A DNA stretch of 64,000 nucleotides from Labyrinthula sp. Ha (Eukaryota; Sar; Bigyra; Labyrinthulida; Labyrinthulaceae): assembly GCA_015227615.1 (NCBI GenBank), contig JAALGZ010000010.1, forward strand, positions 1,352,097-1,416,096, written 5' to 3'. Position numbers and translations under genes: made by a program. The notes beneath the pieces were generated by a model. The model saw nothing but the letters and a program-made list of their open reading frames with translations. It searched no databases and was not told where the DNA came from. Positions 1,255 through 57,450 of this stretch are shown here, piece after piece; the first letter of the stretch is position 1, and every line of letters begins with the position of its first letter.

Positions 1255-2897
1255 AAGAAAACTAGGGCCTTAGAGTATGAAAACAAGAATTTTAAATGAA
1301 TTCTTGCAATCATGAATGCGCTTCCAATTAAAAGCTGTTCACTACTAATTCAGATATTACAATGAATGGGTACGTAATGGACTAACTAGATTATATTTTT
1401 CTTAAACAAACCAACTCCTTAAATCAAAGAGTACTTCTCCTCCTCATTAGAGCTGATCCCAGTGGTAGGAATTCCTACTTACACCCTCTCAAACTTTAGA
1501 CATTGTTACTCAATATTTATAGATTGTATCAAAGATTTATGCGATTTGAAATAGAAAACTATATTCATCCAGTAGCGCAGAAGGGTGGGAATCTAAGAGA
1601 ACACAGATGCAGTAATGAAACTTCATTTCTACAATATTAATTGTATTCATAGTAGGTGCCCTAAGACAACCCCCCCCCCCTTGGTCAACTTCTCTGTTAA
1701 TACAAAATATTAATAAATATTCTCGTAGCTTATAAGCCTATCGCGGATGACAATAAGAATTAGAGCTCTAATGAAAACTTGGGCTGTGTCAAATAAAGTG
1801 GAAGAGCCCAAACTTTTAAGGAAAACCTAAAAAATGCCTTACTTAGCGACCTTTGAATAAGCAACATATCACAAAACTACATAACTGAAATGATAATATA
1901 CTTTGTAGAAACTAGAAAAACAGAAAAGATGATGGCTTTGCTGAAGTATATCTGCAAGGTGTTCATCTCATAAAGAAAATAATAGAATGGGCTTTAACGT
2001 TAATTATTATATATGGTTAATAGAAAATATCCTAAGTATTTGAGGTTACCGACCGCAGGAAGAAAACATGAAAAAATTTTAAATTGCTTAATAATGTAAA
2101 GAATGAAATGAAAACGTAAGAAATGTACTCGATTGATGAGAAAATTGGGGAAAAGGCTCAGTTATACCTGGCAATGAGAGGCAAAACATGGTTGAGCGTT
2201 TTTAGCATTAAATACGAAGTTTGAGCTACTACCAGAGAGAAACTATGCACAAAACATATAATTTTAAATTGAAAAGAGAGAGTTAGCGCACAGCTTTCAT
2301 TCTTTTTTTCTTTTATTTAGATTATTCTCTTTCTATAGACACAATTATACAAGCCAAAGTGAAACTTATAACTATTCATTTGTTGGTTCGACTACAAACT
2401 CAGAAGGCGTAAGATTAACTTCTTAATAAGAAATCAACCAGATATACCAGTTTTGCTCGCGTTTAGGTTAGTCAAAGGAAGAACTCTACTAATTTAAACT
2501 ATATTTCATTCATTCAATGTGTGGCGTGAATTGGGGTAGAAAAGAACCGAGAATTATGGCGTGCTCCGAGTACACGAATTTTCTATTCTAAGCAGAACGA
2601 AAAAAGAAGATGGTATTACCGGTTGTAATATGACAATATTCTCAAGTATCTAGAAACGTTATCTGCTTTTTTTATTTATAAGAAGTTTTACTTTGTGGTT
2701 TCGTGAGAGATTCGATAGTATCTAAGATGCAGTTAGCTGCAACATAAAGTATTTCTACCTTTTCATCACAGGACCTCACTGCTTTTTTGTATTTTTATAA
2801 AAAGAGGGTGGTAAGATATTAATGTTTGATGCGGTTTTCATCTAGGGTGACTTTTGGTACATGTGGAACTAAGGTTTCTTATCGTATAATGCATCAT

Positions 2898-4231: not shown

Positions 4232-4265
4232 TATACTAACAAACTCTACCTCCAGCGGCTGAAAT

Positions 4266-7200
4266 ATGACAAAAATATCCCAGAAACAAATGATGAACTT
4301 GGATAATATTCTTTTTCATATTGACGCAAACTTATCTAATGAAAAACGTCATCTGAATTCTTTGGAGCTTGCAAGATCTGACAAGATAATCTCATTAGGA
4401 GTTTGTCCGTTAAACAACTCGTTCAAATTGTTAACGGACAAGAAGTTTAACAATGAGGTGACCATGATTTTAGAGAACTATCAGAGTTCGGAACTTTTGG
4501 ATACTTTGACTGAAAAGAGATGGCAAAGATATTATACTGGAAAGTTTGGTGCAAAAAAGCTTCAGGAATATTTTTTAAGCTTGCATCCGAAACTTACTTT
4601 AAATTCTCAGTTTGATAAAGATGAAGACAAAATAAATGTTGAAGGCCTTTCTATTTCTGATTCTTTTGGAAAATTAACAAGTAGCAACTTTTGGGGGTGC
4701 ATTTTACGTGAAATGAATTGGATGGCGAAGGATTTTCAATACGAAAGAAAAACCAAAATATCCAGGGCAAGAAAAGTTGCCAACCAAGCAAAAGCTTATG
4801 TTGCTAAGCTTCAGAAGAGACAGATTTTTATTGAACGTGAAAAGGAAAAAAGGCGTAAGGCCACTATTAGCAAGATTCGAAGAATGATTCAAGATTTCTG
4901 GGAAAAAATTACCAAACTTTTGATGCACGAAAAGGCAGAGGAACTCAAAAAATCAGAAGAGGTAAAAATGGAGAAACAACTTGATAAAATTCTCGCAAAA
5001 ACTGCCGCATATTCTTCGCAGTTAGCAGAAAAAATATCCAGGTCGAACTACACGAAGAAACGAATTCGCCCAGTGGAAAATTCATTATCTAAAAAAGTCA
5101 AACTTGAAAAAGAATCTGCCCTAAATCAGGTAAAATATACGACAAATGGGTCAATTTTAAAGTCAATAGAAGCAGAATATAAAGCGTCGTTGCCATTTTT
5201 GCTCGTCAGAAGTGTGACTTTGCGAAATTACCAAAGAAAGGGGTTAGATTGGCTTGTTGGTTTGTATAACAACAGATTAAACGGTATTCTTGCTGATGAA
5301 ATGGGACTCGGAAAAACTTTGCAGACCATTGCACTTTTTGCTTATCTAGCAAGCTATAGGAATATTTGGGGTCCACATTTAATTATTGTTCCAAGTTCTG
5401 TTCTTTTAAATTGGGAACTTGAGTTCAAGCGTTTTTGCCCTGGTTTAAAAGTCTTAGCGTATTACGGAACACCAAAGGAGCGAAAAGAAAAAAGAATTGG
5501 ATGGAACAGCGTTACTTCCAAAGCCGAAAGTGTACGGTTTCATGTTTTAGTGACTAGTTATAAGCTTGCTGTACAGGATCATTGGGTTATTAAAAGGAAG
5601 AAATGGTGTTACATGGTTCTAGATGAAGCCCACCATATCAAGAATTTTAAATCTCAAAGATGGCAAACTTTGTTAGGATTTAAAACCAAGAGAAGACTTT
5701 TGTTAACTGGCACCCCATTGCAAAACTCATTGATTGAACTTTGGTCTTTGCTTCATTTTTTGATGCCTAATTTATTTACTTCACATTTAGAGTTCAAACA
5801 TTGGTTTTCAAATCCTTTAACACAGTTTATAGAAAATCATTCATCAGCTGTAAAATATACTTCTTCGGTAAATGTGTCTGGAAAAAAAGAAAAGCAGAAA
5901 CTGAATAATTTCACTAATGAGAACTTCATTGAGAATGATGAAGAACTTATGAAAAACCTTAACTCTGGTGCTCCTGGATTTGTTACAAAACTTCATTCTA
6001 TTATAAAACCTTTCATTCTTCGAAGGAAGAAAGTTGAAGTTCTAAAAGAGTTGCCTCAAAAATTTGAGCACAACATTTCAATCAGTCTAAGTCCAAGACA
6101 GGAGAGGTTGTATGAAGATTTTGTCAAACGAAAGCAGACCAAACAGAAACTTGTCAGTGGTGGGTATTTGGGGATGATGCAGGTGATGATGAAGTTACGG
6201 ATGGTTTGTAATCACCCTGATATTTTTGAGCCAAGGATGGTCAATTCAGCTCACATTTTGGAACCACTTGTGTTTTCTACTGTTAAATCACAAAAAGTAC
6301 TGAGAAATAAAAAGGTTGTTTCGCTGCTGCAAAGTAACAAACATTTTGTTCATCCAGCATTTTATGAGGAAGATGTTTCAAATTTTTTTAACTCTCAATT
6401 TGCTGTTCAGACAAAATCTTTTTCAGCTGAGTTTAAAGAGTGCATTAAAAGGACTAGCACATCGCGATTTAATTCTTTTGACGATAGAAGCAATTTGGAT
6501 CGAGTAGCACCTCCAAATATGTTTGATGGAGACTATACTAACCGGCTACAAAATTTTGTTAGCCTAACAAAGAAAAAGAACTTCTCCTTAGCTCAAAAGT
6601 TTGGCTTAATTTTGAGCATAAAAGACAGAGTAAAAAGCTTAGATTTTAGGTTGAAGTCCTCTTTATGCGTCGGGGAGTTAGCTGTGGTAGATACACATAA
6701 ATGCATTGTCTCTTCATATGTACGGAATTCTCAGTTCATTATTAACCCAAGGCTGCAGAAGCTGAACGTAGACGTCAATCAACCTATTGTAGCTGAAATT
6801 CTTTCAAGATCAATAAATATATTTCATGCTATAAAAAAACAACTTCAACTAACTTTTCCAGACAGTAGGTTAACAGAATTTGATTCGGGAAAGCTTATTT
6901 ACTTGAAACAATTGTTACAAAATCTGAGTTCATCAAACACGAAGAATAATATAAAGAATAACAAGGTATTAATATTCACTCAGATGACAAAAATGCTCGA
7001 TATTCTTGAAATATTTTTAACTCAAAATGGATTCGTTTATTGTAGATTGGACGGATCAACACCTATCAGAAAACGCCAAGCTTTAATGCACAAATTCAAT
7101 AATGATCCCAATCTTTTTGTATTTATCCTTAGTACCCGATCGGGTGGGTTAGGTATCAATTTAACTGGAGCAAATAATGTCGTGTTCTTTGATTCAGACT

Positions 7201-10073
7201 GGAACCCAACTGTTGATTTACAGGCTCAAGATAGAGCGCACAGAATTGGACAAACTAGAGAAGTTCATATTTTTAGATTAATTTCTACTAAAACCATTGA
7301 AGAAAATATTTTTCTTAAGCAAAAGCAGAAGAGGCAATTAAGCTTTGTTAGTGTTGATTTTAAGAAGATGCGAGATGAGCTGATTCACGGAAAAGGAATA
7401 GAGAGTAATGGAAGCGGAAAGGCGGAATTGGTCGATGAGAAAGAGTTTTTAAATGTAATGACCAAAGTTGAAGATGAAGAAGATCAAATTGCTATGAAGA
7501 ACTTAGAAGACGAAACGCGAGCTGACAAAGAAGATTTTGACGATGATTCTCAAGCCATAAAGACAGCTGACACCGGAAAAAATGGGACTATGAAGAAAGC
7601 TGAAAAAAGCCTAGCTGAACTTTACGAGACACTTTCTCCAATTCATCGATATGGCTTAAATTTAATGAAAGGAGGGTTAGTTTCGATTCAACAAGACAAG
7701 TTCTTCTATAAGTTGCCTAGCAAAGATTTTGATAATTCTGAACCACCTGAAGATATTGAAGAAGTTGAAGATGTAGTTTCTGATAGTGATTTGCTGCATG
7801 GAAAAGAAAATGACGAGGAAATCGTTTCAGATCAACTCAAGGCTGCAGAGTATAACGCTATAAAAGACAAACTTAAAGTGGCAACAAAGTTGCGTGCCAT
7901 TAATGGTACATGTTGGGAAGAGAGACAAGAGAGAATTATTTACGATAAAGCAAATAAGTCAGGGTCTAAGACAAATATCAGAAAATATTATTTCAACATT
8001 GATTCTAAAGAAACTACCTACTTAAGGCCTTCAATTTTGGATGCTATGGCAGCGTATAAGAAATCTCAAAGTATTGGATGGTCTGCACTCCCAGAATCTG
8101 CATTGTTATTGATTTTTTTCTTTCTTCGCGGAAGTAGAGACAAGTTCATCACTGCAAAGGTATGCTTGAATTGGTATCTAGCTTCTCGATCGCCTAAATT
8201 ATCCCTTTGGGTAATGAACAGTGTTGATTACAATTACAAGCTCAAAACCAAATTCGTTCGAAATAATTTTATCGTAGGTGACTCTATAGAAGTTCTTATC
8301 AAGCCAAAACTCGGGGGTAAGACACAAGAAGAGTTGTACATGCCTGGAGTTGTTTCAGATATCAAGACTCTTGTGTCTGGTGAAGTTCAGTATCAGGTTA
8401 CATATTTGAATGGAGGGATTGAGGATGATGTTAAATACTTTCAGTTGCGAAGGGATTCAGGTTTAAGATACACTTTTTCATACCAAACAACAGAGGTAGA
8501 GAAAATTAGTAAAGTTAAGAACAAAATTACTGTGCGAAATTTAAACATGGTGCATTCAAGTTCATTTGCGTGCGGTGTGGATGTTCTTGAAATGAGATTT
8601 AGTACTCTCAGAGCAGCACTTAGACGTGCTCTCCCTGGAGATACGATTGTCCTCAAATCAGGGATTCATAAACAGGATAGAGATATTGTTATAAGGAATC
8701 CTGTTGGGAAAGATCTAGCTGGCATTTCTATTCGAGTAATCGGCGAGCTAAAATATTTTGAAGAGTTGCAGTTGAAAAATATTGTTTACGAAAAAGTGTG
8801 GAAGGATCAACTCGGCTTAAGGCCGTCACTAAGAAATAGGTTGCTTCGAAGCCGATATCAAATTAGTAAGAATACTATTCATCCGCTTGCTAGAGTTCAA
8901 ATTCAAGGGATCACTAGTAGGCTAATCATCAATAGTCCCTATGCGAAGCTTAATGGCACTGAGATGGCCAATGATGCAAGAAAAAGGCGTATGAACTTTA
9001 AACATTACGAACTGGATGATGAGGAAGCCAAACTCGGGTCAATCTTAGTCATGTCGGAGGGAAACATCAAAATCGAACAATTTTCCGGAAACTTGGTTTT
9101 CTCTCAATTTACCCTACTTAAACAGAGGTACAACTTGATTAATCCAAATACTACTTCAGCCCTTCCTCTTATTACTGTTCGCAACTGTCACTACTTTTTA
9201 CTAGATTGCTGTGCTCTGAACACACGGTTTTTCTCTGATCAAATTCTATGCATCAGCAACCCAGGAACTAGCGTGCTAGTTAATAAATCTATTCTGAAGA
9301 ATGCTAAAACTTGTGCACTAAATGTATTAGATGGAATCGTGACTGTTTTACAGAGTCAGCTGATATTTAACAATGATTGTGCAGTTAACCTTTCTTATGG
9401 TAAAGTTTTTATTAATCGCTGCTACTTTTCAAACAATAAAAACTGTGCTGTTAGAGTAGTTCAATTTTTTCAAACTGGTGCTTCTGATCGGTTATATAAC
9501 CTGAGAAATTTTATTCTTGGATACATGAGAGAGTTGGTTCATCGTGTTGAAAGTTTTCAACTAAATAAAAAATTATTTCTAGTACTCACAGGTAACGTAA
9601 CAACAAGAAAACAGAAAGGAATTTACAATAATCTACCATACCCTACTCTTGAGGTTCACCTTGATGATGCCCTTAATGTAAGGTCCAAGCCAATTTTTCA
9701 AATTGTAGATGATAGCAAAGAAGAAAAATTTCATGAAGGACAGCACAAAGAATTAGATCACAAAAAGGATAAGATGAGTAGATATTTGTTTTGCTTCAAT
9801 AACATGTACTCATTGCAAAGTTCTCTAAAATGGCAACCGGCTATAATTCAAACGAGAGATACCAGAAAACGTGACAGAAAAGGCCTGAAGTCCACGATAT
9901 TTGGAAATCTAGCTGCTCTTTCATTAGATGAGATCAGGATATGTGTTGATCAGGTGTTTGATGCAATACTTAGAGATGATTTTACACCTTATCTTGGCAC
10001 TAGTGCTCCAACTTCATTAGACAACTCAAGCTGTTCTGACATTCAGCAAACCCCCAAGCTTATTTTACGATAA
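4266..10073 (+). CDS. SWR1/SRCAP-type SNF2 chromatin remodeller fused to WW-, F-box-, Tudor-like and beta-helix modules
   Basis: An intronless 1935-residue frame. An HSA-like segment starts near W143. The SNF2 ATPase N-lobe starts about residue 319, with Walker A GLGKT (K350), DEAH box 453-456 and LLTGTPLQN near 480. CNHPDIFEPR near 650, typical of the SWR1/SRCAP branch, is followed by an insert of about 250 residues. The C-lobe runs from KVLIFTQM (900) to QDRAHRIGQ (988-996). Family role: ATP-driven exchange of H2A.Z into nucleosomes. After an acidic linker come a WW-like module (W1217, YYFN near 1241; the second Trp is Tyr), an F-box-like helix set (about 1272-1318), a Tudor-like barrel (about 1336-1395) and a right-handed beta-helix (about 1445-1735, opening with an ALPGDTI motif). 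F-box plus beta-helix recalls FBXO11. ATPase identity is secure; the C-terminal modules were assigned by eye. It ends TAA TAG, 15 bp from the convergent sulfotransferase. Confidence 0.93.
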   Translation: MTKISQKQMMNLDNILFHIDANLSNEKRHLNSLELARSDKIISLGVCPLNNSFKLLTDKKFNNEVTMILENYQSSELLDTLTEKRWQRYYTGKFGAKKLQEYFLSLHPKLTLNSQFDKDEDKINVEGLSISDSFGKLTSSNFWGCILREMNWMAKDFQYERKTKISRARKVANQAKAYVAKLQKRQIFIEREKEKRRKATISKIRRMIQDFWEKITKLLMHEKAEELKKSEEVKMEKQLDKILAKTAAYSSQLAEKISRSNYTKKRIRPVENSLSKKVKLEKESALNQVKYTTNGSILKSIEAEYKASLPFLLVRSVTLRNYQRKGLDWLVGLYNNRLNGILADEMGLGKTLQTIALFAYLASYRNIWGPHLIIVPSSVLLNWELEFKRFCPGLKVLAYYGTPKERKEKRIGWNSVTSKAESVRFHVLVTSYKLAVQDHWVIKRKKWCYMVLDEAHHIKNFKSQRWQTLLGFKTKRRLLLTGTPLQNSLIELWSLLHFLMPNLFTSHLEFKHWFSNPLTQFIENHSSAVKYTSSVNVSGKKEKQKLNNFTNENFIENDEELMKNLNSGAPGFVTKLHSIIKPFILRRKKVEVLKELPQKFEHNISISLSPRQERLYEDFVKRKQTKQKLVSGGYLGMMQVMMKLRMVCNHPDIFEPRMVNSAHILEPLVFSTVKSQKVLRNKKVVSLLQSNKHFVHPAFYEEDVSNFFNSQFAVQTKSFSAEFKECIKRTSTSRFNSFDDRSNLDRVAPPNMFDGDYTNRLQNFVSLTKKKNFSLAQKFGLILSIKDRVKSLDFRLKSSLCVGELAVVDTHKCIVSSYVRNSQFIINPRLQKLNVDVNQPIVAEILSRSINIFHAIKKQLQLTFPDSRLTEFDSGKLIYLKQLLQNLSSSNTKNNIKNNKVLIFTQMTKMLDILEIFLTQNGFVYCRLDGSTPIRKRQALMHKFNNDPNLFVFILSTRSGGLGINLTGANNVVFFDSDWNPTVDLQAQDRAHRIGQTREVHIFRLISTKTIEENIFLKQKQKRQLSFVSVDFKKMRDELIHGKGIESNGSGKAELVDEKEFLNVMTKVEDEEDQIAMKNLEDETRADKEDFDDDSQAIKTADTGKNGTMKKAEKSLAELYETLSPIHRYGLNLMKGGLVSIQQDKFFYKLPSKDFDNSEPPEDIEEVEDVVSDSDLLHGKENDEEIVSDQLKAAEYNAIKDKLKVATKLRAINGTCWEERQERIIYDKANKSGSKTNIRKYYFNIDSKETTYLRPSILDAMAAYKKSQSIGWSALPESALLLIFFFLRGSRDKFITAKVCLNWYLASRSPKLSLWVMNSVDYNYKLKTKFVRNNFIVGDSIEVLIKPKLGGKTQEELYMPGVVSDIKTLVSGEVQYQVTYLNGGIEDDVKYFQLRRDSGLRYTFSYQTTEVEKISKVKNKITVRNLNMVHSSSFACGVDVLEMRFSTLRAALRRALPGDTIVLKSGIHKQDRDIVIRNPVGKDLAGISIRVIGELKYFEELQLKNIVYEKVWKDQLGLRPSLRNRLLRSRYQISKNTIHPLARVQIQGITSRLIINSPYAKLNGTEMANDARKRRMNFKHYELDDEEAKLGSILVMSEGNIKIEQFSGNLVFSQFTLLKQRYNLINPNTTSALPLITVRNCHYFLLDCCALNTRFFSDQILCISNPGTSVLVNKSILKNAKTCALNVLDGIVTVLQSQLIFNNDCAVNLSYGKVFINRCYFSNNKNCAVRVVQFFQTGASDRLYNLRNFILGYMRELVHRVESFQLNKKLFLVLTGNVTTRKQKGIYNNLPYPTLEVHLDDALNVRSKPIFQIVDDSKEEKFHEGQHKELDHKKDKMSRYLFCFNNMYSLQSSLKWQPAIIQTRDTRKRDRKGLKSTIFGNLAALSLDEIRICVDQVFDAILRDDFTPYLGTSAPTSLDNSSCSDIQQTPKLILR

Positions 10074-11357: not shown

Positions 11358-11402
11358 CCAAGTCTAACGGATATTTTTTAATCTGCCAAGGATAACAAGT
11401 TC

Positions 11403-11560
11403 TACCGATAGGTATCGGTACTTCAACTTCCAATCGTCACAACGTATATTATCTACCGGTATTATTTGTTACCTTCTGTATTGCCAATACTGATTTTGAT
11501 ACCAAATACCTGCTAATAAATTTTATCAACCTTATTGGTAAATATTAATACCTATCGTTA
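11403..11560. mobile_element. 158-bp MITE-like element between divergent genes
   Basis: The left end TACCGATAGGTA and right end TACCTATCGTTA are inverted repeats matching at 11 of 12 positions. The left end is itself part of an 8-bp palindrome (TACCGATA GG TATCGGTA, 11403-11420). The interior repeats ATACC/GGTAT words. It fills most of the shared upstream region of the sulfotransferase and peroxidase genes. No target-site duplication was found, so an element is inferred; the repeats could instead be paired regulatory sites. Confidence 0.35.
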
Positions 11561-11596
11561 AGAAATATCATTCTTCACAGAAGGAAAGTGTCGGAT

Positions 11597-12174
11597 ATGT
11601 TGAACAGGTTAATGAAAACGTTTGGTTCACAAGGAAATCAGAGATCTACAGGATCAACGTAATAGTTTCATTTTTTTTAATTTTCAGCCCCTTTTATGAC
11701 TTTAAACTACAGAATTTGGAAAAAACTGAAACAGTTATGTTTTCAAAATACCAGAATAAAGTCTGTCTTCTAGTAAATGTAGCATCTAAGTGAGGATTGA
11801 CGGATGCTAGTTACAAGCAGCTAGTGTCCGCAGATAAAAAATATAGAGCAGAAGGATTAGAGATCTTGGGGTTCCCTTGTAACCAGTTTGGGAACCAGGA
11901 GCCAGGTTCAAAAGAGCAGATCCGCAAATTTGTCAACAAGTACGGAGTTGAATTTCAAATGTTTACTAAGATTGATGTGAATGGAAGCAACACAAATGAA
12001 ATTTGGAGATGGATGAAAAAGGAAAAAACTGGTATTTTAGGTGAGGGTTTGATCAAGTGGAACTTTACAAAGTTTCTCGTGGACATGCATGGTTTCGTGA
12101 GGTACAGATTTGAACCCAAAGACAGTGTGGATTCAATGAGACCAAAGATTGAGGAACTTTTGAATGAAGAATAA
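11597..12174 (+). CDS. selenocysteine-containing glutathione peroxidase (spliced; in-frame TGA = Sec)
   Basis: Reduces hydrogen and lipid peroxides with glutathione or thioredoxin. Exon 1 is 11597-11658, a 29-nt intron spans 11659-11687, and exon 2 is 11688-12174; together they encode 182 residues, normal for the GPX4-like monomeric class. Exon 2 opens PFYDFKLQ as the family does. It then reads NVASK-TGA-GLTDASYKQL, with TGA (11791-11793) exactly where the catalytic Cys or Sec stands. Farther on come GFPCNQFGNQEPG (the active-site Gln region) and WNFTKFLVD (the active-site Trp-Asn region). The frame is otherwise clean. A SECIS-like hairpin follows at 12184-12255, which supports true recoding rather than a nonsense mutation. 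The start could also be the in-frame ATG at 11612. It is divergent from the sulfotransferase gene. Confidence 0.85.
11659..11687 (+). other. 29-nt spliceosomal intron in the glutathione peroxidase gene
   Basis: Begins GTAATAG and ends TTTTCAG after a T-rich tract. Removing it joins codon AC|C and puts the ATG exon in frame with the conserved PFYDF start. It resembles the 31-nt intron of the adenylate kinase gene. No transcript evidence is available. Confidence 0.75.
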
Positions 12175-12183
12175 AGAAAATAA

Positions 12184-12255
12184 GCAAAATGGAAGAGGCT
12201 TGATGACGAAGAACTGTGAAAGTTATACTGTAGTTTTTCTGAGAAGGTTCCTTGC
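12184..12255 (+). promoter_or_regulatory. SECIS element (selenocysteine insertion) in the 3' UTR
   Basis: Folded by hand. The core is ATGA at 12203-12206 against TGAG at 12240-12243, which gives the non-Watson-Crick G.A/A.G pairs of a SECIS. Helix II is GAAGAACT (12208-12215) with AGTTTTTC (12232-12239), 8 bp with one G-U pair. The unpaired AA is at 12219-12220, 12 nt after the ATGA, the normal spacing. AGT/ACT (12221-12223/12227-12229) could form the small apical stem of a type 2 SECIS. The lower stem uses GCAA/TTGC, GGAA/TTCC and CTT/AAG. It starts 9 bases after the stop codon, a short but possible distance. Confidence 0.75.
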
Positions 12256-15200
12256 AGAGTGCTTTTTGTGGCTTTTTTGCTCGAAGCCACACATCGGATT
12301 CTGTTTTGGAGCTAAATCTTCTTCCATTTGGCTGTAATATCTTAAGAAATTAGATTCAAATATTTTCTGTAACTTTCAGCTTTCCATTCGTCTATCCAAA
12401 CCGCAAGGATTAGACTTGGGTCTTGGAGTAGAAGAAGTTTGTCATTACTTTTAGTATGTATAGTGAAAAGGAAGGTATTTGACAATAAACAAATGTCAGA
12501 AGGAAGCAGTTCTATTGACTTATATTGATACAAGATTTAATCCCACGCATTTTCTTAATTCAGGTTGGATTTAGTTTGGTTACAGAAGGCATCTTCTAAA
12601 TCCTTTGTTTCAAAGGTCTTTTAGGCAAATAGTCACCCCCCCAGATTATGTTTTTTATTGCTTTAGAGTATCATAGTCCACTTTTTTTTTGGATAATTGG
12701 ATTTCCCAAGAAACAGATTTTCCAAAATTATAATATCAAGAACCAGTGGAATGCAGGAAAAATCACAACATGTTGAAAGATTGAAGAACCACAATGATTA
12801 AGACATGAGCCAGGTAAGAATGTCCATAGATGTGAAAAGGATGTGCATAGGTACATAAAAAATCCCGGAAATAACTAAAATATTTAAGCTCTTTCTCTTG
12901 TCAGATCATCGGAGTGTGGAAAGAAAACTTTCCTAAAAAATGTTGGAAACGAAAACTAATGAAGAATACAGAAACAACTGAAAAAGAAACAAAACCTGGA
13001 AGAGCAACTATAACAAGTATATTATCTCAAGTTATTACATTTTACTTAGAAATGGAAAGGGGGCTACAGTGTGAACTTTAGGGCGCTTTCTCCACCAACA
13101 ATGTTTCTGCTGAATGAGATGGCATAAAGCTATGTTGCTTTGATATTAGTGAATGGAATGAATACATTTAAAGAGTTCAAATTAAGTCAACACAAAAGTT
13201 AAAGTAAGTTTTATAAAGTAATATAACTTATTTCTTGGATGGGTACATGTGAAATGCTCAAGTGGTGTTGTATTTTTGGATGGGAGAGGGTTATTGGGTA
13301 CTATTTTTGGATTTGGAAGAGGTACGTGTCTAAGGGTTTGCTGAGGGGCATAGGGATCAGATCTTTTCTTTCTTAGGTTTGTATGCTACATAATTTTTGT
13401 GCTGTTGATTTATTTCTTTTGAGGTTTGGCTTTTCGTCATACGGGGCACCATAAAAAGAATATGGTTTTTATTTGGATGGAGTTTTGAATTTTACTTTAC
13501 ACTGAAAAAATGACTTATATTTTGTATGGGGCCATTGTTTCTATAATTTACTCAGAGAAAAGTTTCACTTATATTATTGACGAGGAATTGAATGTTAGGT
13601 TTGTTCAAACAGAGAAAGTAAGCGAATTAAAGTATTTTTCATTTTACAAGAGGTTTTGGATTGTTTTTCGAACAGTATTGAATACCATGATGCTGTCTAC
13701 AGCTAGTGTTTTTGTTAAGAAAAACTAAATCAAGTCCTTAGCTTAGCTTGAATGAGTACGTGGGGAACCTTCAATATGGTTTGGGTTAGAGATCACTGTA
13801 TAGGCTACTAACTCCAATGGTATGGATGAGTAAAAAGGAAAACGTCATAAAGCTACATCAAATATTAGCTCAACTTACTCTGTGACCCTCCTTCATCTGT
13901 TTTGAGTCTCAGTTTTCTTTTCCGAGGTGTGCTCAAGCTTATTGATGATTCCTATGGTAAGGATGAATCAAAATCCAAGAATACTCCATCTTGATTATTC
14001 TTTAGAGTAACTTGTATCTTCATTACTATTGCATGGGCCTATTTCCACCATTCACCAATTTTCCTTGCTTCAATGCATAATTCCTTGCAGGCCAAAAATA
14101 GTTACGCTTACTTTGCAGATGGGTAAGATTGCGCCTTAGACATCTTGAATAATGATACATAGGGTTAGAACTTCAATCCTTCTATGCTTGATATTTCTAT
14201 TCTTTCCCACTATTTCCAAGCAGGAACAGAGACGTGATGTCTATGAAAATCCCATCTAGATTGCAGAGTTGACTGTTATATGCACTTTCGATTCTCTTCG
14301 TATCTAATACGTGCATGGTGCCTGCAAGACAAGCTCAAGCTAAGTCAGAAGAAGCCAGGGAATATTGAGTATAAAATCTCATGCACCAAATGAAGTTCAA
14401 TATGGAATTCAACCCATTCTGTTACAATGGGACTGCAGTTTTCATTGTATAAGCTCATGTAGCAAGAAAATTCTATTTTGATCACTGGTTTATTAGAGTT
14501 TGTAGCTCATTGTACATTTCAGCTTTTTTCGCTGTGATCTTTTATGTTAGACAACGTTTGATGCAGACACCTTTCTATTATTTAATAATAACATCGTAGA
14601 AGTTTTTCTGGAGTTTTGGACTTCAATGTCAGTTTTAATGCACCCCCTTACTTTCAATATTGAATTAAGTTACTCAATCTTTTAGCTAATTTTATGAGAA
14701 ATAGTAAAATTTTGCTAGTCGGGGACCAATGTAGTATTATTTTTTTTCTTGTGAAACTTCTTAGATAGTTTTACTAAGGAGTGCATAACATGTAATGAAG
14801 ATTAGTTTCAGGAGCTGGTCTCAAATCGTACTAATTAGAAGTAATTTTTGAAATTGACCTTAAACTGCAGAAGCTTTTACCAGATAATATTTTAAAGTTG
14901 AGCCCAATAAGGCTGCAAAATGTTTAATTACTTTCACATGAGTGGTTCATAATTATGTCAGAATCCTTCATTCAGCTTAAAATAAAATGTACAAGTTGCA
15001 TGTTGGAGAAGATGTATACTTAATTCTTCAGAACCTGAATTTATCCTCTTTTCACAGAAAAAATAAATAGAGATATGTGATTCTACATGTTCCCGAAATA
15101 TAGCAATAGAGAATATAATGAGTATATGCGGGTAAGAAATTGCACCTATATTAGCGTTATATCGAGAAAAAGTTATAAATAATATTCTGAAGATAACTAA

Positions 15201-27063: not shown

Positions 27064-27456
27064 GCACTAAAAACATAAACGCTCTGATTTAGTCTTGATA
27101 TCCCGGCAATATCTCGAATTTCTCCTCCCGACTCGTAAATATAAATTTTTCTACAAATTTGACTCATGGGAATATCTGGTAATGAGAGAAATATGAAATG
27201 AAATTCATCCCTTCTCGAGAAAGGACATAAGTGTAACGTATATTCATAATCCTACCTCAAGTGTGGAAACATAACCAAGAAGTTGTTGAAGAGCAGCCGG
27301 GAAACTCTTCTTCTTGTAGTTACGAGCAGCTATAATAAGCCAGCGTTACCATACAGCATCACTCTTTTATCTTTTCTGTAAAACACAGCACGAAGAGTTT
27401 GTTTTAGAAAGAACGTTAAGGATATAAAATAGTAAACCCCATACCTACTGGGCGAA

Positions 27457-28446
27457 ATGGCAGAAGATCGTTGCGTGGAGGTTGATTGTCTTCAAGGGGA
27501 GTGTGAGAATGATACATGTATTTGTGAAGAAGGTTTTTTTGTAAGTGATGATTTACATTTTACGTCTGAACCCGGAGTTTGTCTGGCTCCAATTCTACTA
27601 ATGAAAATTATGTACCTGACTACAGCAGGTTTATATTTATTACTTTTTCTTTGCTATGTACTAAGTACAAAAAAACTTTCTCAAGTCAAGAGGTTAATTC
27701 CAACATTTTTAGTGTGTTCTTGTTTAATCCCACTCTTTATACTTAAATTCTTGCACCCGGAAAGGTCAGTGGGAATAGATGTTGGAATTACACTTCTATA
27801 TACTTTTTCTTTATTAAACTTATTTTTAGCTTTAGCAACATTTCTGAATAAGTATATTGTTTTTCTTCTAGAAAGTATAATAATCAAAAATAACTTTTCG
27901 AGAAAGCGGTTAGAACTTTACACGTTTGTTTTTAAATTTACGACTGTTATAAGCGTTCTTACTTGTTTTGTTTTGCTTTCTATTTTATTTACATCAAAGA
28001 ATACATCTAAAATATTGGCTAAGTTGTTCTTATTTCTATGTTTAGTTAATTTTACCTTTTTTCTGATTCTTTCAATCTACTTATTTACAAACATTTTAAC
28101 GGACGCTCAAAGTTTGCTGACGTCATTGGAAGCACGCTTGAACACTGAAGACAAAAAACTATTTGGTTTAGTACGAAGACTTAAGACATTACGATCAGCG
28201 ACTGTGACCACTTTTATTATGTTCTTTCTACTAAGTGCTATTCCTCTTTTATCAGAAGGTAACCTTCTTTTTCAATTTGTTCTGCCATTAAAGTTTTCTT
28301 TTGGTGCATTACTCTCACTGAAAATTTTGCAAACTAATCTGAAAGTTCGAACACAAAAAACATCAAAACAAACAATAACTTTACAGAAATCTGCTACTCA
28401 GGTAACTACAACTATGAAAGAGCTTTCAAAAAGTATTGACATTTAA
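27457..28446 (+). CDS. EGF-domain seven-transmembrane receptor-like protein, copy A
   Basis: 329 residues, intronless. The N-terminus has six cysteines at 6, 11, 16, 21, 23 and 42 in the EGF order C-x4-C-x4-C-x4-C-x-C-x18-C. Seven hydrophobic segments follow at about 44-70, 81-99, 107-131, 154-180, 186-213, 249-266 and 269-291. The loops after segments 1, 3 and 5 and the C-terminal tail are rich in Lys and Arg, so the EGF module should face out and the tail in, as in a G-protein-coupled receptor. There is no cleavable signal peptide; segment 1 would act as anchor. I do not recognise a family or ligand. It differs from copy B at three residues (51, 55, 229), and its frame is intact. It ends 3 bp from the convergent adenylate kinase relic. 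Confidence 0.82.
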   Translation: MAEDRCVEVDCLQGECENDTCICEEGFFVSDDLHFTSEPGVCLAPILLMKIMYLTTAGLYLLLFLCYVLSTKKLSQVKRLIPTFLVCSCLIPLFILKFLHPERSVGIDVGITLLYTFSLLNLFLALATFLNKYIVFLLESIIIKNNFSRKRLELYTFVFKFTTVISVLTCFVLLSILFTSKNTSKILAKLFLFLCLVNFTFFLILSIYLFTNILTDAQSLLTSLEARLNTEDKKLFGLVRRLKTLRSATVTTFIMFFLLSAIPLLSEGNLLFQFVLPLKFSFGALLSLKILQTNLKVRTQKTSKQTITLQKSATQVTTTMKELSKSIDI

Positions 28447-28449
28447 AAG

Positions 28450-28964
28450 TTATAATCTGCTTGTTCTAGTCTTCGTTTTCATTCCTAATTTTTCCACTAT
28501 TTCCGGAAAGTCTCCTAAACCTTTCTTAATATTTACAGTTTTTAATAATCCTTTGCTTTCATAGAAATCCAACAAAGGCATTGTTTGTTTTTCATACACT
28601 CTGAGTCTATTCTGAACTACATCTAAGACATCATCCGCACGTTTCACCAACACGGATCCGCAGTCACATTGTAATTTAGAGCCATTCTTGGGCAACAACG
28701 GTGGCATATCGACTCCTCGTTCTTTATTTCTAACATGTGTTACATTAAAACTTTTCTTACAAGTTGGGTTGGAACAAATTCTTCTACCCAGAATTTTGTC
28801 AATTAAATATTCGCTTTCCATATTCAAGTTTAAAACATGATCTAGCTTTAAGAAATTCTCCAAAGCTTTTGCTTGAGGAATTGTTCTTGGAAATCCATCC
28901 TAAAGAGTTATAGTCGGAGAATAAACATACAAAAATTATCCCTGAAAAGTTTTTGGGAAGCGTT
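28450..28964 (-). pseudogene. 5'-truncated adenylate kinase copy
   Basis: This is the 3' part of the gene seen whole at 57454-58268. Exon 3 (28450-28899) is open and close to the intact copy, and the 31-nt intron (28900-28930) is kept with a GTATG donor. The copied sequence breaks off a few codons into exon 2, at 28964. The P-loop exon and most of exon 2 are absent from the flanking DNA, so no working enzyme can be made. The break coincides with the end of the segmental duplication. Few changes have built up in the surviving part, so the duplication looks recent. Confidence 0.88.
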
Positions 28965-31884: not shown

Positions 31885-32800
31885 TACAGGTAATATTATA
31901 TCCAATGTTGAGACTATCCTTCACTTAGCCCTAAAACCTTATTTCGTTTCTTTCTTAGATAATTTTTTAAACTTATGTGTGGAATAAATTAATCAACGGT
32001 CAAGTGGATAAAATTTAAGAGGTTTCCTAGAAGACATGACTTTCATCAAATTTCCTTCAATATTCCGGATGATTAATCGTGGTTTATACTGAACATATTT
32101 CCCTAGTATATTCCACATAATATTAACTTATCCCACTAGATAAAATAATAGACAATAAATTTCATATACCTTCAATAGGATAAACTTTTGTCGATATTTG
32201 TTGAAACTCTAAACCCCAATTGAATGTTCTTTCCGTATTAGTTTTTTAACAAAATAGTGAGCTCAAAATAAATATTCAATACTTGTGATAAGTGGAAACC
32301 CCTATTTAGTTGCCTCAGATGATATATGAAAGTTTCATATCTGTTACTATAATCTTGAATGGTTCTTTACAGCTTATATGTCAGTCCAATTGATTACTCT
32401 TGAACCATCTTTGCGACATCACAACCACATAAACTTTATTTAAATTGAATTTATATAATATATTTGTTCATCTTTTTGACATAAAGATAACTTCAAAATT
32501 GTTCACTGAAATCAGCGAAGAATGATAAAATCTTTCCTTGGGTCATAATATCTAAACGATATGTCTAAACTATTTTCATATTGTTGATAAAGTGCTTATA
32601 GACTTCTTTGAAAAGCTCCATACATCTTATCGGAATTAAATCTTTTCCAGCTTATTAACCTTTTCTAAGATATTATTTCCTCCTTCTATTAAATTTCGTA
32701 CTCCAAAAAACAATTGAGACACGAGAATCACATTATAGGCAAACATATCTGTGCAAGTAAGTATGTGTATTGTGGACTCCTCTTGCTAAAATTTTTTGCA
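31885..32800 (-). repeat. dispersed repeat copy 1, possible gag relic
   Basis: About 0.9 kb that recurs in the same orientation at 43220-44140 with high but imperfect identity. Translated on the minus strand, copy 2 gives a run beginning IQDYSNRYETFIYHLRQL. This looks like the R-F/Y-x-x-hydrophobic-L helical pattern of retrotransposon capsid (gag) domains. Both copies are broken by stops and indels. The gag reading is tentative; the repeat itself is clear. Confidence 0.6.
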
Positions 32801-43219: not shown

Positions 43220-44140
43220 CAGTTAATATTGTATTCAATATCAAAACCATTCTTTCATTGTCAGTCAAGGCCTTATCTAGTTTCTTTTGTAGATCATTTT
43301 TTTTATTTATACGTGGAATAAATTAATCAGCGATCAAGTGGGTAAAATTTAAGAGGTTTCCTAGAAGATATGACTTCCTTCAAATTTCCTTCGATATTCC
43401 GGATAATTATTCGTCATTTGTACTGAGGATATTTCCTTAGTAGATTCCACATAATATTAACTTATCTCACTAGATAAAATACTAGAAAATAAGTTTCATA
43501 TATTTTCAATAGGGTAAACTTTCGGCGATACTTGTTGAAACTCTAGACCCCAATTGATTGTTCTTTTCATATTTGTTTTCCTAACAAACTCGTGAGTTAA
43601 AAATAAATATTCAATACTTGTGATAAGTGGAAACCCCTATTTAGTTGCCTCAGATGATATATGAAAGTTTCATATCTGTTACTATAATCTTGAATGGTTA
43701 TTTACAAATTATATGTCAGTTCAATTGATTACCCTTGAACCATCTCTGCGACATCACAACCACATAAACTTTATTGAAATTGAATTTATATAATAAATTT
43801 TTTCATCTTTTTGACATAAAAGATAACTTCAAAATTGTTCATTGAAATCAGCGAAGAATGATAACATCTTTCCTTGGATCATAGTATTTAATTGATATAT
43901 CTAAACTATTTTCATATTGTTGATAAAGTGCTTCTGGATTTCTTTCAAAAGATCTATGCATTTCATTTGAATTTATTTTTTTTCAGCTCTTTAACCTTCC
44001 CTGAGATCTTATTTTCTCCTCTTATTAAAGTTCGTACTTCAAAAAAACAATTGAGACATGAAAATCACATTATATGCAAACATATCTGTGCAATTTTGTA
44101 CGTGTATTTTGGATTATTCTTACTGCGAAAGTTTTCACAT
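43220..44140 (-). repeat. dispersed repeat copy 2, possible gag relic
   Basis: Second copy of the 0.9-kb repeat at 31885-32800, same orientation, offset about 11.33 kb. It matches almost continuously with scattered substitutions and small indels. The gag-like minus-strand reading is slightly better kept here. Confidence 0.6.
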
Positions 44141-52579: not shown

Positions 52580-54660
52580 AAAAAATTGGGGAATCGCTTT
52601 TACCCATCACGTTACGAAAGATACCTGACTTTAGAGTCAAAACCCAAACCTGGTTTGTTTCTTGGATTTCAATCAAATAATAGCAATGAAAAAGCAATCA
52701 TTTAAAGCTTAGAAGTGGAAAAGATAATTCATTCTATCTTAACAAATATATTTTTTCAAGAATTTAGCACGCATCAGGAATTCAGTAAGAATCAAAAGCT
52801 TTCCTTTGGAGAAGCCAAATTTTTGCTAAATTGCGAAAATTCTGAATCTGACGATGATGAAGAAAATCTTAATCAAAATAGAGTCGATACACATATTGAA
52901 ACGGCTCCAAGCCCCGAAAACAAAGAAAATCAAGAATTTCGAAATTTTGAAAAATCTCAAAATTTTGAACCTCAACATGAAAATTCATCTAATCTCAACG
53001 ATGACGAAAATTACACCGAAAACATACATAAGGCAGTCCAAAAGCCTTCCAATGAACAAATTCGGGAAAATTTCATGGATCTAGGGCATGATGATCATTC
53101 TGGACATTCAGATGCAGAGGTAGACACCAGTCAAAATGAGCAACAAAATGACCATGAAGAGACGGTTCCCAACTCAGGAGAAGCAACTAACCAGAAGAAC
53201 AGCTACAAACAAACTCTGTTAGCAAAACCAAGAACCAAAACCGTTACAACTAGATCTGGAAGAAAGGCCACAATGTTAGATCTCAGAAAAGCAGTTGCTT
53301 TTACTGTGGAGACAACAGAGGATGGAACCTACAAACTTAAACCAAAAACACTTGGAGAAAAGAAAAGGTTACAACAGAAAATCATTGAAGCAAAGTTGAA
53401 GAACCTTCCGAACGTTTACAAAGACATTAAAAATCATCCTGAAGAAAAACTTTACTTAGAAGCAGTGCGAAAGGAAATTAACGCTCTTGAAACTAGAGGT
53501 GTCATGAAACTAGTTCCAAGGTCAACTCTTCCACAAGACGTGTTCATTGGGAAGTGTACCATGTTGGTAAAGAAGAAACGTAATGGAAAGCACAAGGTAC
53601 GTTGCGTTTACAATGGTCGAAAACAACGCTACAAAATCACTACACATCGAAGCTCACCAACACTCAACGCAGAAAGTCTTAGTGTGGCTCTCGCAATTGC
53701 TGCAAGCAGAGGTTTTGACTTTAACTCACTGGATGTCAGCACAGCTTTTCTTTACACAGATCTTCCACCAAACACGGAACTCTTTTGCGAAATTCCTGAT
53801 GGTCATCCGCTACAGCATGAAAACAAGACAATGGTGATGAAAATCTACAAAGCGCTCTACGGACTAAAAGAAAGTCCTAAACTGTGGCATGACAATGTAA
53901 CAGCAAACTTAAGCAATTTAGGTTTCCTTCAAGCAAAATTTGATGAATGTGTTTACTACAAACAAAACTTAATTTTACTCTTGTACGTGGATGATGTTCT
54001 GATGTTAGGAAACAAAAACGAAATCTCAAAATTCATTAAATCATTTCAGAAGTTTTACACATGCACAGTTGGAAATCTTAATGAATCAGTAGATTTCTTA
54101 TGAGTTAACATTTCTAAAAACAGCAAAGGAGATTTTGAAATTGATCAAACTAATTACATCAACGGATTACTGAAGAAGTTCAAACACTTAGTTGCAACAC
54201 CTAAAGACATACCTCTTACAGCTACATTCAAACCACTAGTCGATCCTGAACACAAATCAAACACGAAATTTCCTTACAGACAAGTCTTAGGATCTCTCAT
54301 CTACCTTAGACTAACAAGGTTAGATTTAATTTTTGCATTACACGCTCTTAACAGGTTCACAGAGAATATAACTTAAGAGGTAATCAAAGCAATTAAGAAC
54401 ACTCTAGGCTAGTTACAACAGACAAAAAATCTAAAGAGAAGATTCTTCAAAGGAATTGGAAGTGTTCAAACTAATCTCGTTCTGTGATACAGAACCGGCT
54501 GATAACAAATTGAATCGAAAATCAGTTATTGGAAACTAAATTTGTTTATGTCAATCTCTAGTAAGTAGAAAAAGCAAAGCAAAAAGCGTTGTAGCAAAGT
54601 CAGCTGCAGGTGCCGAATTCATGAGGATTCATTCAACAGGTAAACAATTACAAGGAATCG
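52580..54660 (+). mobile_element. broken Ty1/Copia retrotransposon (integrase end, reverse transcriptase, RNase H)
   Basis: The integrase C-terminal end reads SKPKPGLFLGFQSNN at about 52637-52685, followed by a TAA. A 462-codon open stretch (52715-54103) starts with an acidic, Asn-rich linker. It continues into the Copia reverse transcriptase: EIN-ALETRGV, ARCV-type YNGRKQR, NSLDVSTAFLYTDL (motif A) and LILLLYVDDVLMLG (catalytic YVDD). It halts at TGA 54101-54103. The same frame continues with GSLIYLRLTRLDLIF, typical of the Copia RT/RNase H junction, then has stops at 54374 and 54407. A worn RNase H end with SRKSKAKSVV lies near 54580. gag, protease and long terminal repeats were not found, so this is a 5'-truncated, inactive copy. 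Confidence 0.88.
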
Positions 54661-55139: not shown

Positions 55140-56190
55140 TTTTCGTTGATGGTTTTCTTGACATTTATAAAGATGAATAACACTGCTTCTCTTTGTTCAA
55201 TATTTTCTGTAAATACCTCATAATTCTTGATCAAATCTCCCACAGTTAAATCCCTCCTCAACTTCTACCTTTGAATTTCTTCTGGAAATGATCTATGATA
55301 CTTTCTTTGGAAACAGTCTTGCCCAAATATTCCTTCATTTCATAATTCTCTAAGGAAATTCTTCGCTTCAACTCAACTAAAGCTCGTTGTTGATCATTTA
55401 ATCTTTCTTATTGGTACAGAAACTTCTCGATTTTTTCAATTGAAAAGTCTTCAAGTTTGAGAGTATGATTTAAAAAAGTCCCCACTCGATTTGTTAACAA
55501 TTTTATATGATATTGGTTAAGATCCTGCAGCACTTTCTTCACTTGAGCTTGATTCAACGACCTTGGAGTTACATCTTTCTTTTCCACTAAGCTCATATTT
55601 TTAAACTTCATGTAGAATTCATGCCACTAATTAGCTCTGCTTCTATAAATTTCATTTTTATAAGTAGACCTAAGCTTCAGAAAAGTTTTCAATGTTTCAG
55701 TATTTAGGCTTTCCTTCCCGATAAATCCAAGTAAACAAGACATGCGCAACTGAAACGAACATAAGTAGGATAGAAACTATCACTAAGGTTTGATTCCAAC
55801 CACAAAAGGCGCAAACATAGCTTCAACAATGATTTTCTCAGGTGAAGTTTTTTCCGAAGAACTTAAACTTGTTAATCATCTATAACAACCATATTTTATA
55901 TTTCTTGTATTTTCATAATGACGTGTTCACAACATTCACTATCACGAATTTGGGTTCTCAAATCATTCGTTAACTGTTCCAGATAAAAGCCAGTTCAATT
56001 ATTGCAAGTATGAGGAAATAAAATAACACTTTCTCAAATGGTAAATTTTCACACACACCATGCTTTTGCGTTAAAAATAAAAACTCTCTGACTTTGTCTC
56101 GATATCCCGTTATTTTCTCGAATCTATCCTCCCGCGTTATTTGGTTAAGTTTTCCTACAAATTTCACACAAACTAATGTCTTCTAGTGAG
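55140..56190 (-). pseudogene. eroded helical-protein relic, partly shared by both duplication copies
   Basis: Minus-strand blocks read as a charged, helical protein. The first is KFVGKLNQITREDRFEKITG (start about 56165). Then come EQLTNDLRTQIRDSE (about 55980), a 67-codon block at 55408-55611 with LNQAQVKKVLQDLNQ, and after one stop RLNDQQRALVELKRR. After a frameshift comes LTVGDLIKNYEVFTEN. Stops and frameshifts exclude a working gene. The first block also survives, more damaged, at about 27080-27160, so it was part of the duplicated segment. No family recognised. Confidence 0.4.
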
Positions 56191-56460
56191 AGCAATATAC
56201 AATGAATGTCATCCCTTCTCCAGAAAGGACATAAGTGTAACGTATATTCATAATCCTACCTCAAGTGTGGAAACATAACCAAGAAGTTGTTGAAGAGCAG
56301 CCGGGAAACTCTTCTTCTTGTAGTTACGAGCAGCTATAATAAGCCAGCGCTACCCTACAGCGTCACACTTATGTCTTTCCTGCAAAAGACAGCAGGAAAA
56401 GTTTGTTTCAGAAAGAGTGTTAAGGATATAAAGTAGTAAACCCCATACCTACTGGGCGAA

Positions 56461-57450
56461 ATGGCAGAAGATCGTTGCGTGGAGGTTGATTGTCTTCAAG
56501 GGGAGTGTGAGAATGATACATGTATTTGTGAAGAAGGTTTTTTTGTAAGTGATGATTTACATTTTACGTCTGAACCCGGAGTTTGTCTGGCTCCAATTCT
56601 ACTAATGAAACTTATGTATCTGGCTACAGCAGGTTTATATTTATTACTTTTTCTTTGCTATGTACTAAGTACAAAAAAACTTTCTCAAGTCAAGAGGTTA
56701 ATTCCAACATTTCTAGTGTGTTCTTGTTTAATCCCACTCTTTATACTTAAATTCTTGCACCCGGAAAGGTCAGTGGGAATAGATGTTGGAATTACACTTC
56801 TATATACTTTTTCTTTATTAAACTTATTTTTAGCTTTAGCAACATTTCTGAATAAGTATATTGTTTTTCTTCTAGAAAGTATAATAATCAAAAATAACTT
56901 TTCGAGAAAGCGGTTAGAACTTTACACGTTTGTTTTTAAATTTACGACTGTTATAAGCGTTCTTACTTGTTTTGTTTTGCTTTCTATTTTATTTACATCA
57001 AAGAATACATCTAAAATATTGGCTAAGTTGTTCTTATTTCTATGTTTAGTTAATTTTACCTTTTTTCTGATTCTTTCAATCTACTTATTTACAAACATTT
57101 TAACGGACGCTCAAAGTTTGCTGACGTCATTGGAAGCACGCTTGAGCACTGAAGACAAAAAACTATTTGGTTTAGTACGAAGACTTAAGACATTACGATC
57201 AGCGACTGTGACCACTTTTATTATGTTCTTTCTACTAAGTGCTATTCCTCTTTTATCAGAAGGTAACCTTCTTTTTCAATTTGTTCTGCCACTAAAGTTT
57301 TCTTTTGGTGCATTACTCTCATTGAAGATTTTGCAAACTAATCTGAAAGTTCGAACACAAAAAACATCAAAACAAACAATAACTTTACAGAAATCTGCTA
57401 CTCAGGTAACTACAACTATGAAAGAGCTTTCAAAAAGTATTGACATTTAA
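56461..57450 (+). CDS. EGF-domain seven-transmembrane receptor-like protein, copy B
   Basis: Same architecture as the protein at 27457: a six-Cys EGF module outside, seven membrane segments, and basic cytoplasmic loops and tail. It has Leu51, Ala55 and Ser229 where copy A has Ile, Thr and Asn; the other 326 residues are identical. Several nucleotide differences are silent, so both copies appear to be held as proteins. About 240 bases upstream of the ATG are also conserved between copies, including the sequence around the start codon, so each may carry its own promoter. The stop is 3 bp from the stop of the convergent adenylate kinase gene. Confidence 0.82.
   Translation: MAEDRCVEVDCLQGECENDTCICEEGFFVSDDLHFTSEPGVCLAPILLMKLMYLATAGLYLLLFLCYVLSTKKLSQVKRLIPTFLVCSCLIPLFILKFLHPERSVGIDVGITLLYTFSLLNLFLALATFLNKYIVFLLESIIIKNNFSRKRLELYTFVFKFTTVISVLTCFVLLSILFTSKNTSKILAKLFLFLCLVNFTFFLILSIYLFTNILTDAQSLLTSLEARLSTEDKKLFGLVRRLKTLRSATVTTFIMFFLLSAIPLLSEGNLLFQFVLPLKFSFGALLSLKILQTNLKVRTQKTSKQTITLQKSATQVTTTMKELSKSIDI

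What the first reader, a model, noticed from the sequence alone, without database searches (positions are those of the whole stretch)
4266..10073. Chromatin remodeller fused to an F-box/Tudor/beta-helix tail
The SWR1/SRCAP ATPase is complete, yet the same intronless frame continues for about 900 residues. That tail holds a WW-like, an F-box-like, a Tudor-like and a right-handed beta-helix module. Known SWR1/SRCAP proteins do not carry these. The F-box plus beta-helix pair resembles FBXO11, a ubiquitin-ligase substrate receptor. The fusion would place nucleosome remodelling, possible histone-mark reading and SCF-type ubiquitination in one chain. The ATPase is seen directly; tail module identities and function are inference.
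Basis: partly seen in the sequence, partly recalled or inferred. Interest (0 to 1): 0.85.

Follow-up and report, generated by a model that had tools for sequence, protein, structure and literature searches.

The report
SWR1-type remodeller with F-box/beta-helix tail
A microbial eukaryote carries a histone-exchange (SWR1/SRCAP-type) chromatin motor whose single protein chain continues into an extra tail with an F-box and a probable beta-helix, which may tie chromatin remodelling to the protein-tagging (ubiquitin) machinery.

Summary
The main observation holds. Window 4266-10073 (+) is one open frame of 1935 codons. Residues 146-1145 form a SWR1/SRCAP-type ATPase, the only gene with an HSA match over cut-off found in this 50.8 Mb eukaryotic genome. 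The frame runs about 790 residues beyond SRCAP homology. Coding signal does not drop at the junction and no methionine lies between residues 1134 and 1261, so a separate tail gene is unlikely. Of four proposed tail modules, the F-box is well supported (though below Pfam's cut-off), the beta-helix moderately (22-residue repeat), the WW weakly and in part, and the Tudor not at all beyond resemblance. The UBR finger of FBXO11 is not found, so FBXO11 is an analogy. Three SWR1-like loci recovered from environmental contigs gave no tail match; the end of the chain is visible in two. Structure prediction failed and was then switched off; no transcripts or eukaryotic sequence collection were available, so fold and spread across species are untested. 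Best reading: a SWR1-type remodeller with a built-in SKP1/SCF docking arm. The fusion is likely real; the ubiquitin function is inference.

The parts
4266..10073 (+). Single open frame, 1935 aa, SWR1/SRCAP-type ATPase plus tail
   Evidence: coding score continuous; tail found at one place in the 50.8 Mb genome apart from a chance-level hit at E 1.32
4701..4862 (+). HSA domain, residues 146-199
   Evidence: Pfam PF07529 27.1 bits over cut-off 23; the only one of two HSA matches in the genome that is over the cut-off
5229..6221 (+). SNF2 N-terminal ATPase lobe, residues 322-652, with DEMGLGKT at 344 and DEAH box at 453
   Evidence: PF00176 4.2e-79; motif positions
6222..6908 (+). Insert between the two ATPase lobes, residues 653-881
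   Evidence: gap between PF00176 and PF00271 matches; SRCAP has about 1080 residues at the corresponding break (930 to 2010)
6909..7250 (+). Helicase C lobe, residues 882-995, with QAQDRAHRIGQT at 986
   Evidence: PF00271 3.9e-25
7599..7700 (+). Conserved post-ATPase box, residues 1112-1145, last stretch that aligns with SRCAP
   Evidence: alignment to SRCAP up to 2331
7701..7898 (+). Linker 1146-1211, junction of core and tail, without methionine
   Evidence: highest coding score of the 32 bins; no Met between 1134 and 1261
7899..8039 (+). WW-like segment, residues 1212-1258; only 1238-1255 matches the model
   Evidence: PF00397 15.6 bits, E 0.016, model 14-31 of 31, below cut-off 26.9; a RIO1 match (E 0.022) outranked it (E 0.042)
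8079..8210 (+). F-box, residues 1272-1315
   Evidence: PF12937 21.9 bits E 1.5e-4 (cut-off 24.3), PF00646 14.4 bits (cut-off 20.5); 1fs1_A only PDB match; own-genome F-box profile
8265..8450 (+). Tudor-like segment, residues 1334-1395; identity unproven
   Evidence: visual resemblance only; Pfam hits there are chance level: Peptidase_U32_C E 0.075, DUF4819 E 0.17
8592..8720 (+). Possible N-terminal cap of a beta-helix, residues 1443-1485 (LRAALRRALPGDTIVL at 1448)
   Evidence: resemblance recalled from beta-helix proteins; no Pfam match on its own (protein 6)
9264..9461 (+). Three 22-residue units, probable coils of a right-handed beta-helix, residues 1667-1732
   Evidence: 22-residue self-repeat; PF13229 15.3 bits E 0.016, below cut-off 25.9
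9540..10073 (+). C-terminal 177 residues, no recognised domain
   Evidence: no Pfam match up to E 10 (protein 8)

Best explanation
The gene encodes the organism's SWR1/SRCAP-type remodeller, the kind of ATPase that in known eukaryotes swaps H2A for H2A.Z. Its chain carries an extra C-terminal arm in which an F-box most likely binds SKP1 and a beta-helix region most likely binds a partner or substrate. Proposed working: the arm docks an SKP1-cullin ligase on the remodeller, so that a chromatin protein met during histone exchange can be ubiquitylated, or so that the remodeller's own level is controlled. Shown by sequence: complete ATPase and HSA, continuous frame, F-box at the profile level, 22-residue repeat. 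Inferred: H2A.Z exchange, SKP1 binding, beta-helix fold, ubiquitin ligase activity, substrate.
For: SWR1/SRCAP identity; only HSA match over cut-off; two other SNF2 genes that I classified are ISWI-like and DDM1-like. Two YL1_C matches over cut-off. One frame. F-box. Repeat. SCF parts exist in the genome: one SKP1 match, four cullin matches. Two SWR1-like genes from other organisms end about 80 and about 10 residues after their post-ATPase box, with no tail.
Against: F-box, WW and Beta_helix scores are all below their curated cut-offs, and fragment borders were tuned over. Tudor unsupported. NCBIfam gave nothing for the tail. The tail does not resemble the genome's own beta-helix family: it was not listed at E up to 100, while at least 22 of 200 shuffles were (listing cut). 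No relative of the tail in what could be searched, so no conservation evidence. No structure, transcript or binding data.
Confidence: 0.5

Rival explanations
1. The fusion is real, and the F-box binds SKP1 or another partner only as a structural joint. The tail is an assembly or targeting arm of the SWR1 complex and no ubiquitin is transferred.
For: F-box proteins with non-degradative SKP1 roles are known (recalled: yeast Ctf13). No UBR finger or other ligase module was found in the tail. SWR1-type ATPases act as scaffolds for many subunits (recalled).
Against: Nothing tested here separates this from the ligase reading; SKP1 and cullin matches are present.
Confidence: 0.25
2. The fusion is real but the module names are mostly wrong: the tail is a fast-evolving lineage-specific extension with one F-box-like stretch and a short repeat.
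For: All module scores lie below curated cut-offs; the Tudor has no match; solved-structure searches of the beta-helix and Tudor pieces gave only weak unrelated hits; no likeness to the genome's own beta-helix family.
Against: The own-genome F-box profile scores the stretch above all 500 shuffles and all other windows; the 22-residue repeat was reached by 0 of 1000 shuffles of 1415-1760.
Confidence: 0.18
3. Two separate genes, or an assembly misjoin, read as one frame by chance.
For: No transcript evidence; one assembly only; no relative with the same fusion found.
Against: No stop in 1935 codons while the other forward frames have 148 and 193; highest coding score at the junction; no Met between 1134 and 1261, so the WW-like part has no start of its own; the one intron delineated here is 31 nt.
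Confidence: 0.07

Closest known systems
SRCAP / SWR1 (INO80-class Snf2 ATPases, H2A.Z exchange)
   Same: HSA, split ATPase with a long insert, post-ATPase box; best solved-structure matches
   Different: About 790 further residues with an F-box-like stretch and a 22-residue repeat; that human SRCAP and yeast SWR1 lack these is recalled, not tested
FBXO11 (SCF substrate receptor)
   Same: F-box followed by a probable beta-helix (CASH-type) region, same order
   Different: No UBR zinc finger found; the F-box sits behind a remodeller; no FBXO11 chain among solved-structure matches up to E 10 (whether the PDB holds one was not checked)
SWR1-like genes in environmental contigs L043, L044, L045
   Same: HSA, SNF2 and Helicase_C in L043, SNF2 and Helicase_C in L044 (L045 not given to it); tblastn 46-55% identity to the ATPase lobes in all three
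   Different: L043's frame ends about 80 residues, L044's about 10, after a box that I matched by eye; no tail match in any of the three; L045 runs into the locus edge

Membership tests
SWR1/SRCAP-type Snf2 ATPase | SNF2 ATPase with intact Walker A, DEAH and motif VI | tested here: met
SWR1/SRCAP-type Snf2 ATPase | HSA domain ahead of the ATPase | tested here: met
   27.1 bits over cut-off 23
SWR1/SRCAP-type Snf2 ATPase | Long insert between the ATPase lobes | tested here: met
   residues 653-881 between the two Pfam matches
SWR1/SRCAP-type Snf2 ATPase | Closer to SRCAP/SWR1 than to INO80 and others | tested here: met
   6.1e-187 and 2.4e-163 against 6.9e-125 and weaker; by score, no tree was built
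SWR1/SRCAP-type Snf2 ATPase | H2A.Z-H2B exchange activity | not testable with these tools
   needs biochemistry
F-box protein | F-box motif | tested here: met
   below Pfam's cut-off but consistent: E 1.5e-4, own-genome profile, 1fs1_A
F-box protein | Binding to SKP1 | not testable with these tools
   an SKP1 gene exists
FBXO11 | Beta-helix (CASH) repeats after the F-box | tested here: inconclusive
   22-residue repeat, Beta_helix E 0.016 below cut-off
FBXO11 | C-terminal UBR-type zinc finger (listed as an FBXO11 domain in passages of PMC8825234) | tested here: not met
   no such Pfam match in the last 177 residues or in residues 1201-1935
Tudor-domain protein | Tudor fold | tested here: inconclusive
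   no Tudor family matched; no structure obtained
WW-domain protein | Complete WW domain | tested here: inconclusive
   only model positions 14-31 matched, E 0.016; weak PRP40-homolog match at E 2 over the same stretch

The most novel reading that the evidence does not exclude
A histone-exchange remodeller that is itself an SCF substrate receptor: one chain that opens the nucleosome, swaps in H2A.Z and, through its F-box and beta-helix arm, presents a chromatin protein (such as an evicted histone or a bound factor) for ubiquitylation, so that exchange and degradation are coupled in cis.
Probability: 0.27. Interest if true: 0.8.

Novelty: new variant of a known kind. Interest (0 to 1): 0.52.

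Why it matters
In the organisms studied so far H2A.Z exchange and SCF ubiquitin ligases are separate machines (recalled) whose cross-talk is hard to dissect. A natural fusion would say that the two act together in at least one lineage, and would give a simple genetic test (delete the F-box, keep the ATPase). It may also be a lineage-wide feature that has gone unnoticed.

Tried and rejected
Structure prediction of the tail: busy; accepted; polled until it failed (interrupted). A smaller job (residues 1195-1430) was busy, and the tool was declared switched off; it was not called again. Fold search was never run.

Search for relatives: tail in viral contigs none, phages one weak hit at E 2; core in viral contigs and genome contigs none (each of these scans uses six short peptide patterns only). 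Hand-made DNA patterns for conserved SWR1/SNF2 motifs found one IMG/VR contig and two contigs inside prokaryote MAGs; two further patterns on viral contigs found only the same contig.

Kinship of the tail with the genome's own beta-helix genes: a profile from four of the eight loci (L033, L037, L038, L039) did not list the tail at E up to 100, while at least 22 of 200 shuffles were listed. Rejected. tblastn of the tail against the other host loci held at that time gave only chance hits, best E 0.26.

PHROGs gave one family of unknown function, E 0.015, for residues 1625-1740; not pursued.

Intron hidden in the frame: a loose pattern listed 15 candidates; none was tested further.

Clues: no chlorophyll-binding protein match at E up to 0.001, one 31-nt intron, a PTxxPT-repeat protein; a heterotrophic stramenopile is a guess from recall. 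A find for intron length in PMC5608401 (Blastocystis) gave no passage.

Literature: listings only, and none listed; passages seen in PMC8825234; in PMC6952815 only two reference-list passages were returned. The listings showed no such fusion by title or abstract start; this is not proof that it is unpublished.

Full report
What was checked. The window lies in a 50,840,425-base, 153-contig assembly (contig C2:1352097-1416096) of an unnamed organism, a eukaryote by its gene content: SNF2 remodellers, SKP1, cullins and an apparent 31-nt intron in what reads as an adenylate kinase gene (the gene name is recalled from its sequence). Window 4266-10073 + is one open frame of 1935 codons, with TGA at 4260-4262 upstream and TAA at 10071-10073. 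A sulfotransferase frame on the other strand ends 15 bases further on, at 10089.

The core. Pfam finds HSA, SNF2 and Helicase_C, all above cut-off. Phmmer against solved structures ranks SRCAP first (6.1e-187), then SWR1 (2.4e-163, 3.4e-163), INO80 (6.9e-125 and weaker) and p400 (1.1e-107). Walker A, DEAH box and motif VI are present. The SRCAP alignment ends at residue 1145. The genome search with HSA found two matches, of which this gene alone is over the cut-off. One search listed 28 SNF2-type places, one of them this gene. I classified two other genes only: L004 is ISWI-like (best chain 1e-232) and L007 DDM1-like (2.6e-104). The rest were not classified, so a second SWR1-type gene without a recognisable HSA is not excluded. 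Two YL1_C matches over cut-off suggest that SWR1/INO80-class partner subunits exist.

Is the tail part of the same gene? With a codon model trained on 30 long ORFs of other loci (67,788 bases), frame 0 is positive in all 32 bins of 60 codons (the last 15 codons were not scored). In the 13 bins from 1141 on it is the best of the three forward frames in 12 (exception 1501-1560). In the 19 bins before, it is exceeded in 601-660 and tied in 421-480. The junction bin 1141-1200 has the highest score, 0.44. The other forward frames hold 148 and 193 stops; reverse frames were not scored. No methionine lies between 1134 and 1261. Together these make two genes or a chance read-through unlikely. A misjoined assembly or an undetected in-frame intron is not excluded, and no transcript was available.

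The F-box. In the full-length protein the match is weak (14.6 bits, E 0.028) and in the 735-aa tail 15.9 bits; in a 70-aa fragment it is 21.1 bits and in a 57-aa fragment 21.9 bits, E 1.5e-4, always under the cut-off of 24.3. The fragment borders were chosen after seeing earlier results, which flatters the E-value. Independent support: the only solved-structure match for the 70-aa piece is 1fs1_A, E 0.24, a 53-residue chain aligned over the LP, IF, VC and WY positions (the printed molecule name is CYCLIN A/CDK2-ASSOCIATED P19; that the chain is the Skp2 F-box is recalled). An alignment of eight other F-box segments of this genome was made (A1): of the ten places, the window gene itself (L029) and L026, taken for a second copy of L024 without checking, were left out; three of the eight (L023, L024, L025) are above the Pfam cut-off and five below. 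It gives hhalign score 23.8, P 9.9e-5, probability 58% for this stretch, against 8.9 and 8.8 for two control fragments of the tail. As an HMM it ranks residues 1266-1322 first at 12.5 bits, followed by the overlapping window 1261-1317 (12.3); the best of 500 shuffles has 9.2 bits and the best non-overlapping window 5.1.

The beta-helix. Residues 1667-1732 hold a 22-residue repeat: best lag score 34, reached by 0 of 1000 shuffles of 1415-1760 and 4 of 1000 shuffles of the whole tail; residues 1-1160 run the same way give 616 of 1000. About 22 residues is the coil length typical of right-handed beta-helices (recalled). Pfam Beta_helix gives 13.7 to 15.3 bits, E 0.016-0.048, in three fragments, under the cut-off of 25.9. 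The motif LRAALRRALPGDTIVL at 1448 resembles the N-terminal cap of such folds (recalled), but that piece alone matched nothing, nor did the 304-aa fragment 1409-1712. The solved-structure search with 1409-1671 gave only a topoisomerase piece at E 0.093. The tail is not related by profile to the genome's own large beta-helix proteins.

WW and Tudor. The WW match covers model positions 14-31 only, E 0.016; in the fragment a RIO1 match (E 0.022) outranked it (E 0.042). A PRP40-homolog chain appears at E 2 over the same stretch. No Tudor model matched; the Pfam hits there are Peptidase_U32_C (E 0.075) and DUF4819 (E 0.17), and the solved-structure search gave unrelated glycosyltransferases at E 0.13 and a Paf1-complex subunit at E 0.3. 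These two modules should be treated as unproven.

Relatives. The tail occurs once in its genome (the other listed place has E 1.32 and lies in a PTxxPT-repeat protein). Pattern scans brought three SWR1-like loci: L043, an IMG/VR contig, and L044, L045, contigs inside prokaryote MAGs that must be eukaryotic by this gene. All three match the ATPase lobes at 46-55% identity. L043 has HSA, SNF2 and Helicase_C and L044 SNF2 and Helicase_C (L045 was not given to that call). By eye, L043's frame ends about 80 residues after its post-ATPase box and L044's about 10; L045's frame runs into the edge of the locus. None matches the tail at E up to 10 (0 of 3 loci; 0 of 3 records, where the tool warns that an empty answer without a positive control shows nothing). 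L043 and L045 look like close kin by eye, so this is about two lineages. It suggests that the tail is not general; it does not show where it began.

Mechanism. The simplest reading is a SWR1-type remodeller with a built-in SKP1 docking site. The genome has one SKP1 match and four cullin matches, so an SCF ligase can probably be formed. FBXO11 has an F-box, three CASH domains important for substrate recognition, and a UBR finger (passages of PMC8825234). The missing UBR finger means this is not FBXO11, but the working principle could be alike. The non-degradative rival is plausible and cannot be separated by sequence.

Verdict (judgement, not computed). Fusion real: about 0.9. F-box real: about 0.85. 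Beta-helix: about 0.7. WW: about 0.35. Tudor: about 0.4. SCF function: about 0.4.

Noticed in passing
window 11791-12174 (+): Glutathione peroxidase frame (PF00255 4.6e-26) preceded directly by an in-frame TGA in NVASK-TGA-GLTDASYK, where selenocysteine usually sits (recalled): probably a selenoprotein gene. An Rfam scan of 11400-13000 at E up to 5 listed no SECIS family.
   Followed up: partly
window 27068-28964 and 56072-57968: A 1.9 kb segment, with a membrane-protein-like frame and part of an adenylate-kinase-like gene (names by eye), is duplicated at 95.5% identity 29 kb apart.
   Followed up: partly
window 31937-32776 and 43271-44113: A second repeat pair, 88% identity over 843 bases.
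   Followed up: no
window 57904-57934 (-): The adenylate-kinase-like gene has an apparent 31-nt GT..AG intron, unusually short.
   Followed up: partly
window 52706-54103 (+): Reverse transcriptase fragment (PF07727 5.1e-25), a model recalled as Copia-type.
   Followed up: no
L043 2222-5566 and 7365-8555: An IMG/VR viral contig holds a SWR1-type gene and a T4-type major capsid gene (Gp23, 1.3e-95): probably a chimeric assembly.
   Followed up: partly
L044 and L045: SWR1-type genes sit in contigs filed under a Euryarchaeota MAG (PBDU01000012.1) and a Rhodobiaceae MAG (PBRS01000004.1): probably eukaryotic contamination.
   Followed up: partly
L033-L039 (host contigs C70, C121, C124): Long open frames (941-1199 aa) with beta-helix matches, two pairs with equal scores (L033/L034, L035/L036); none of the ten F-box places lies on these contigs.
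   Followed up: partly
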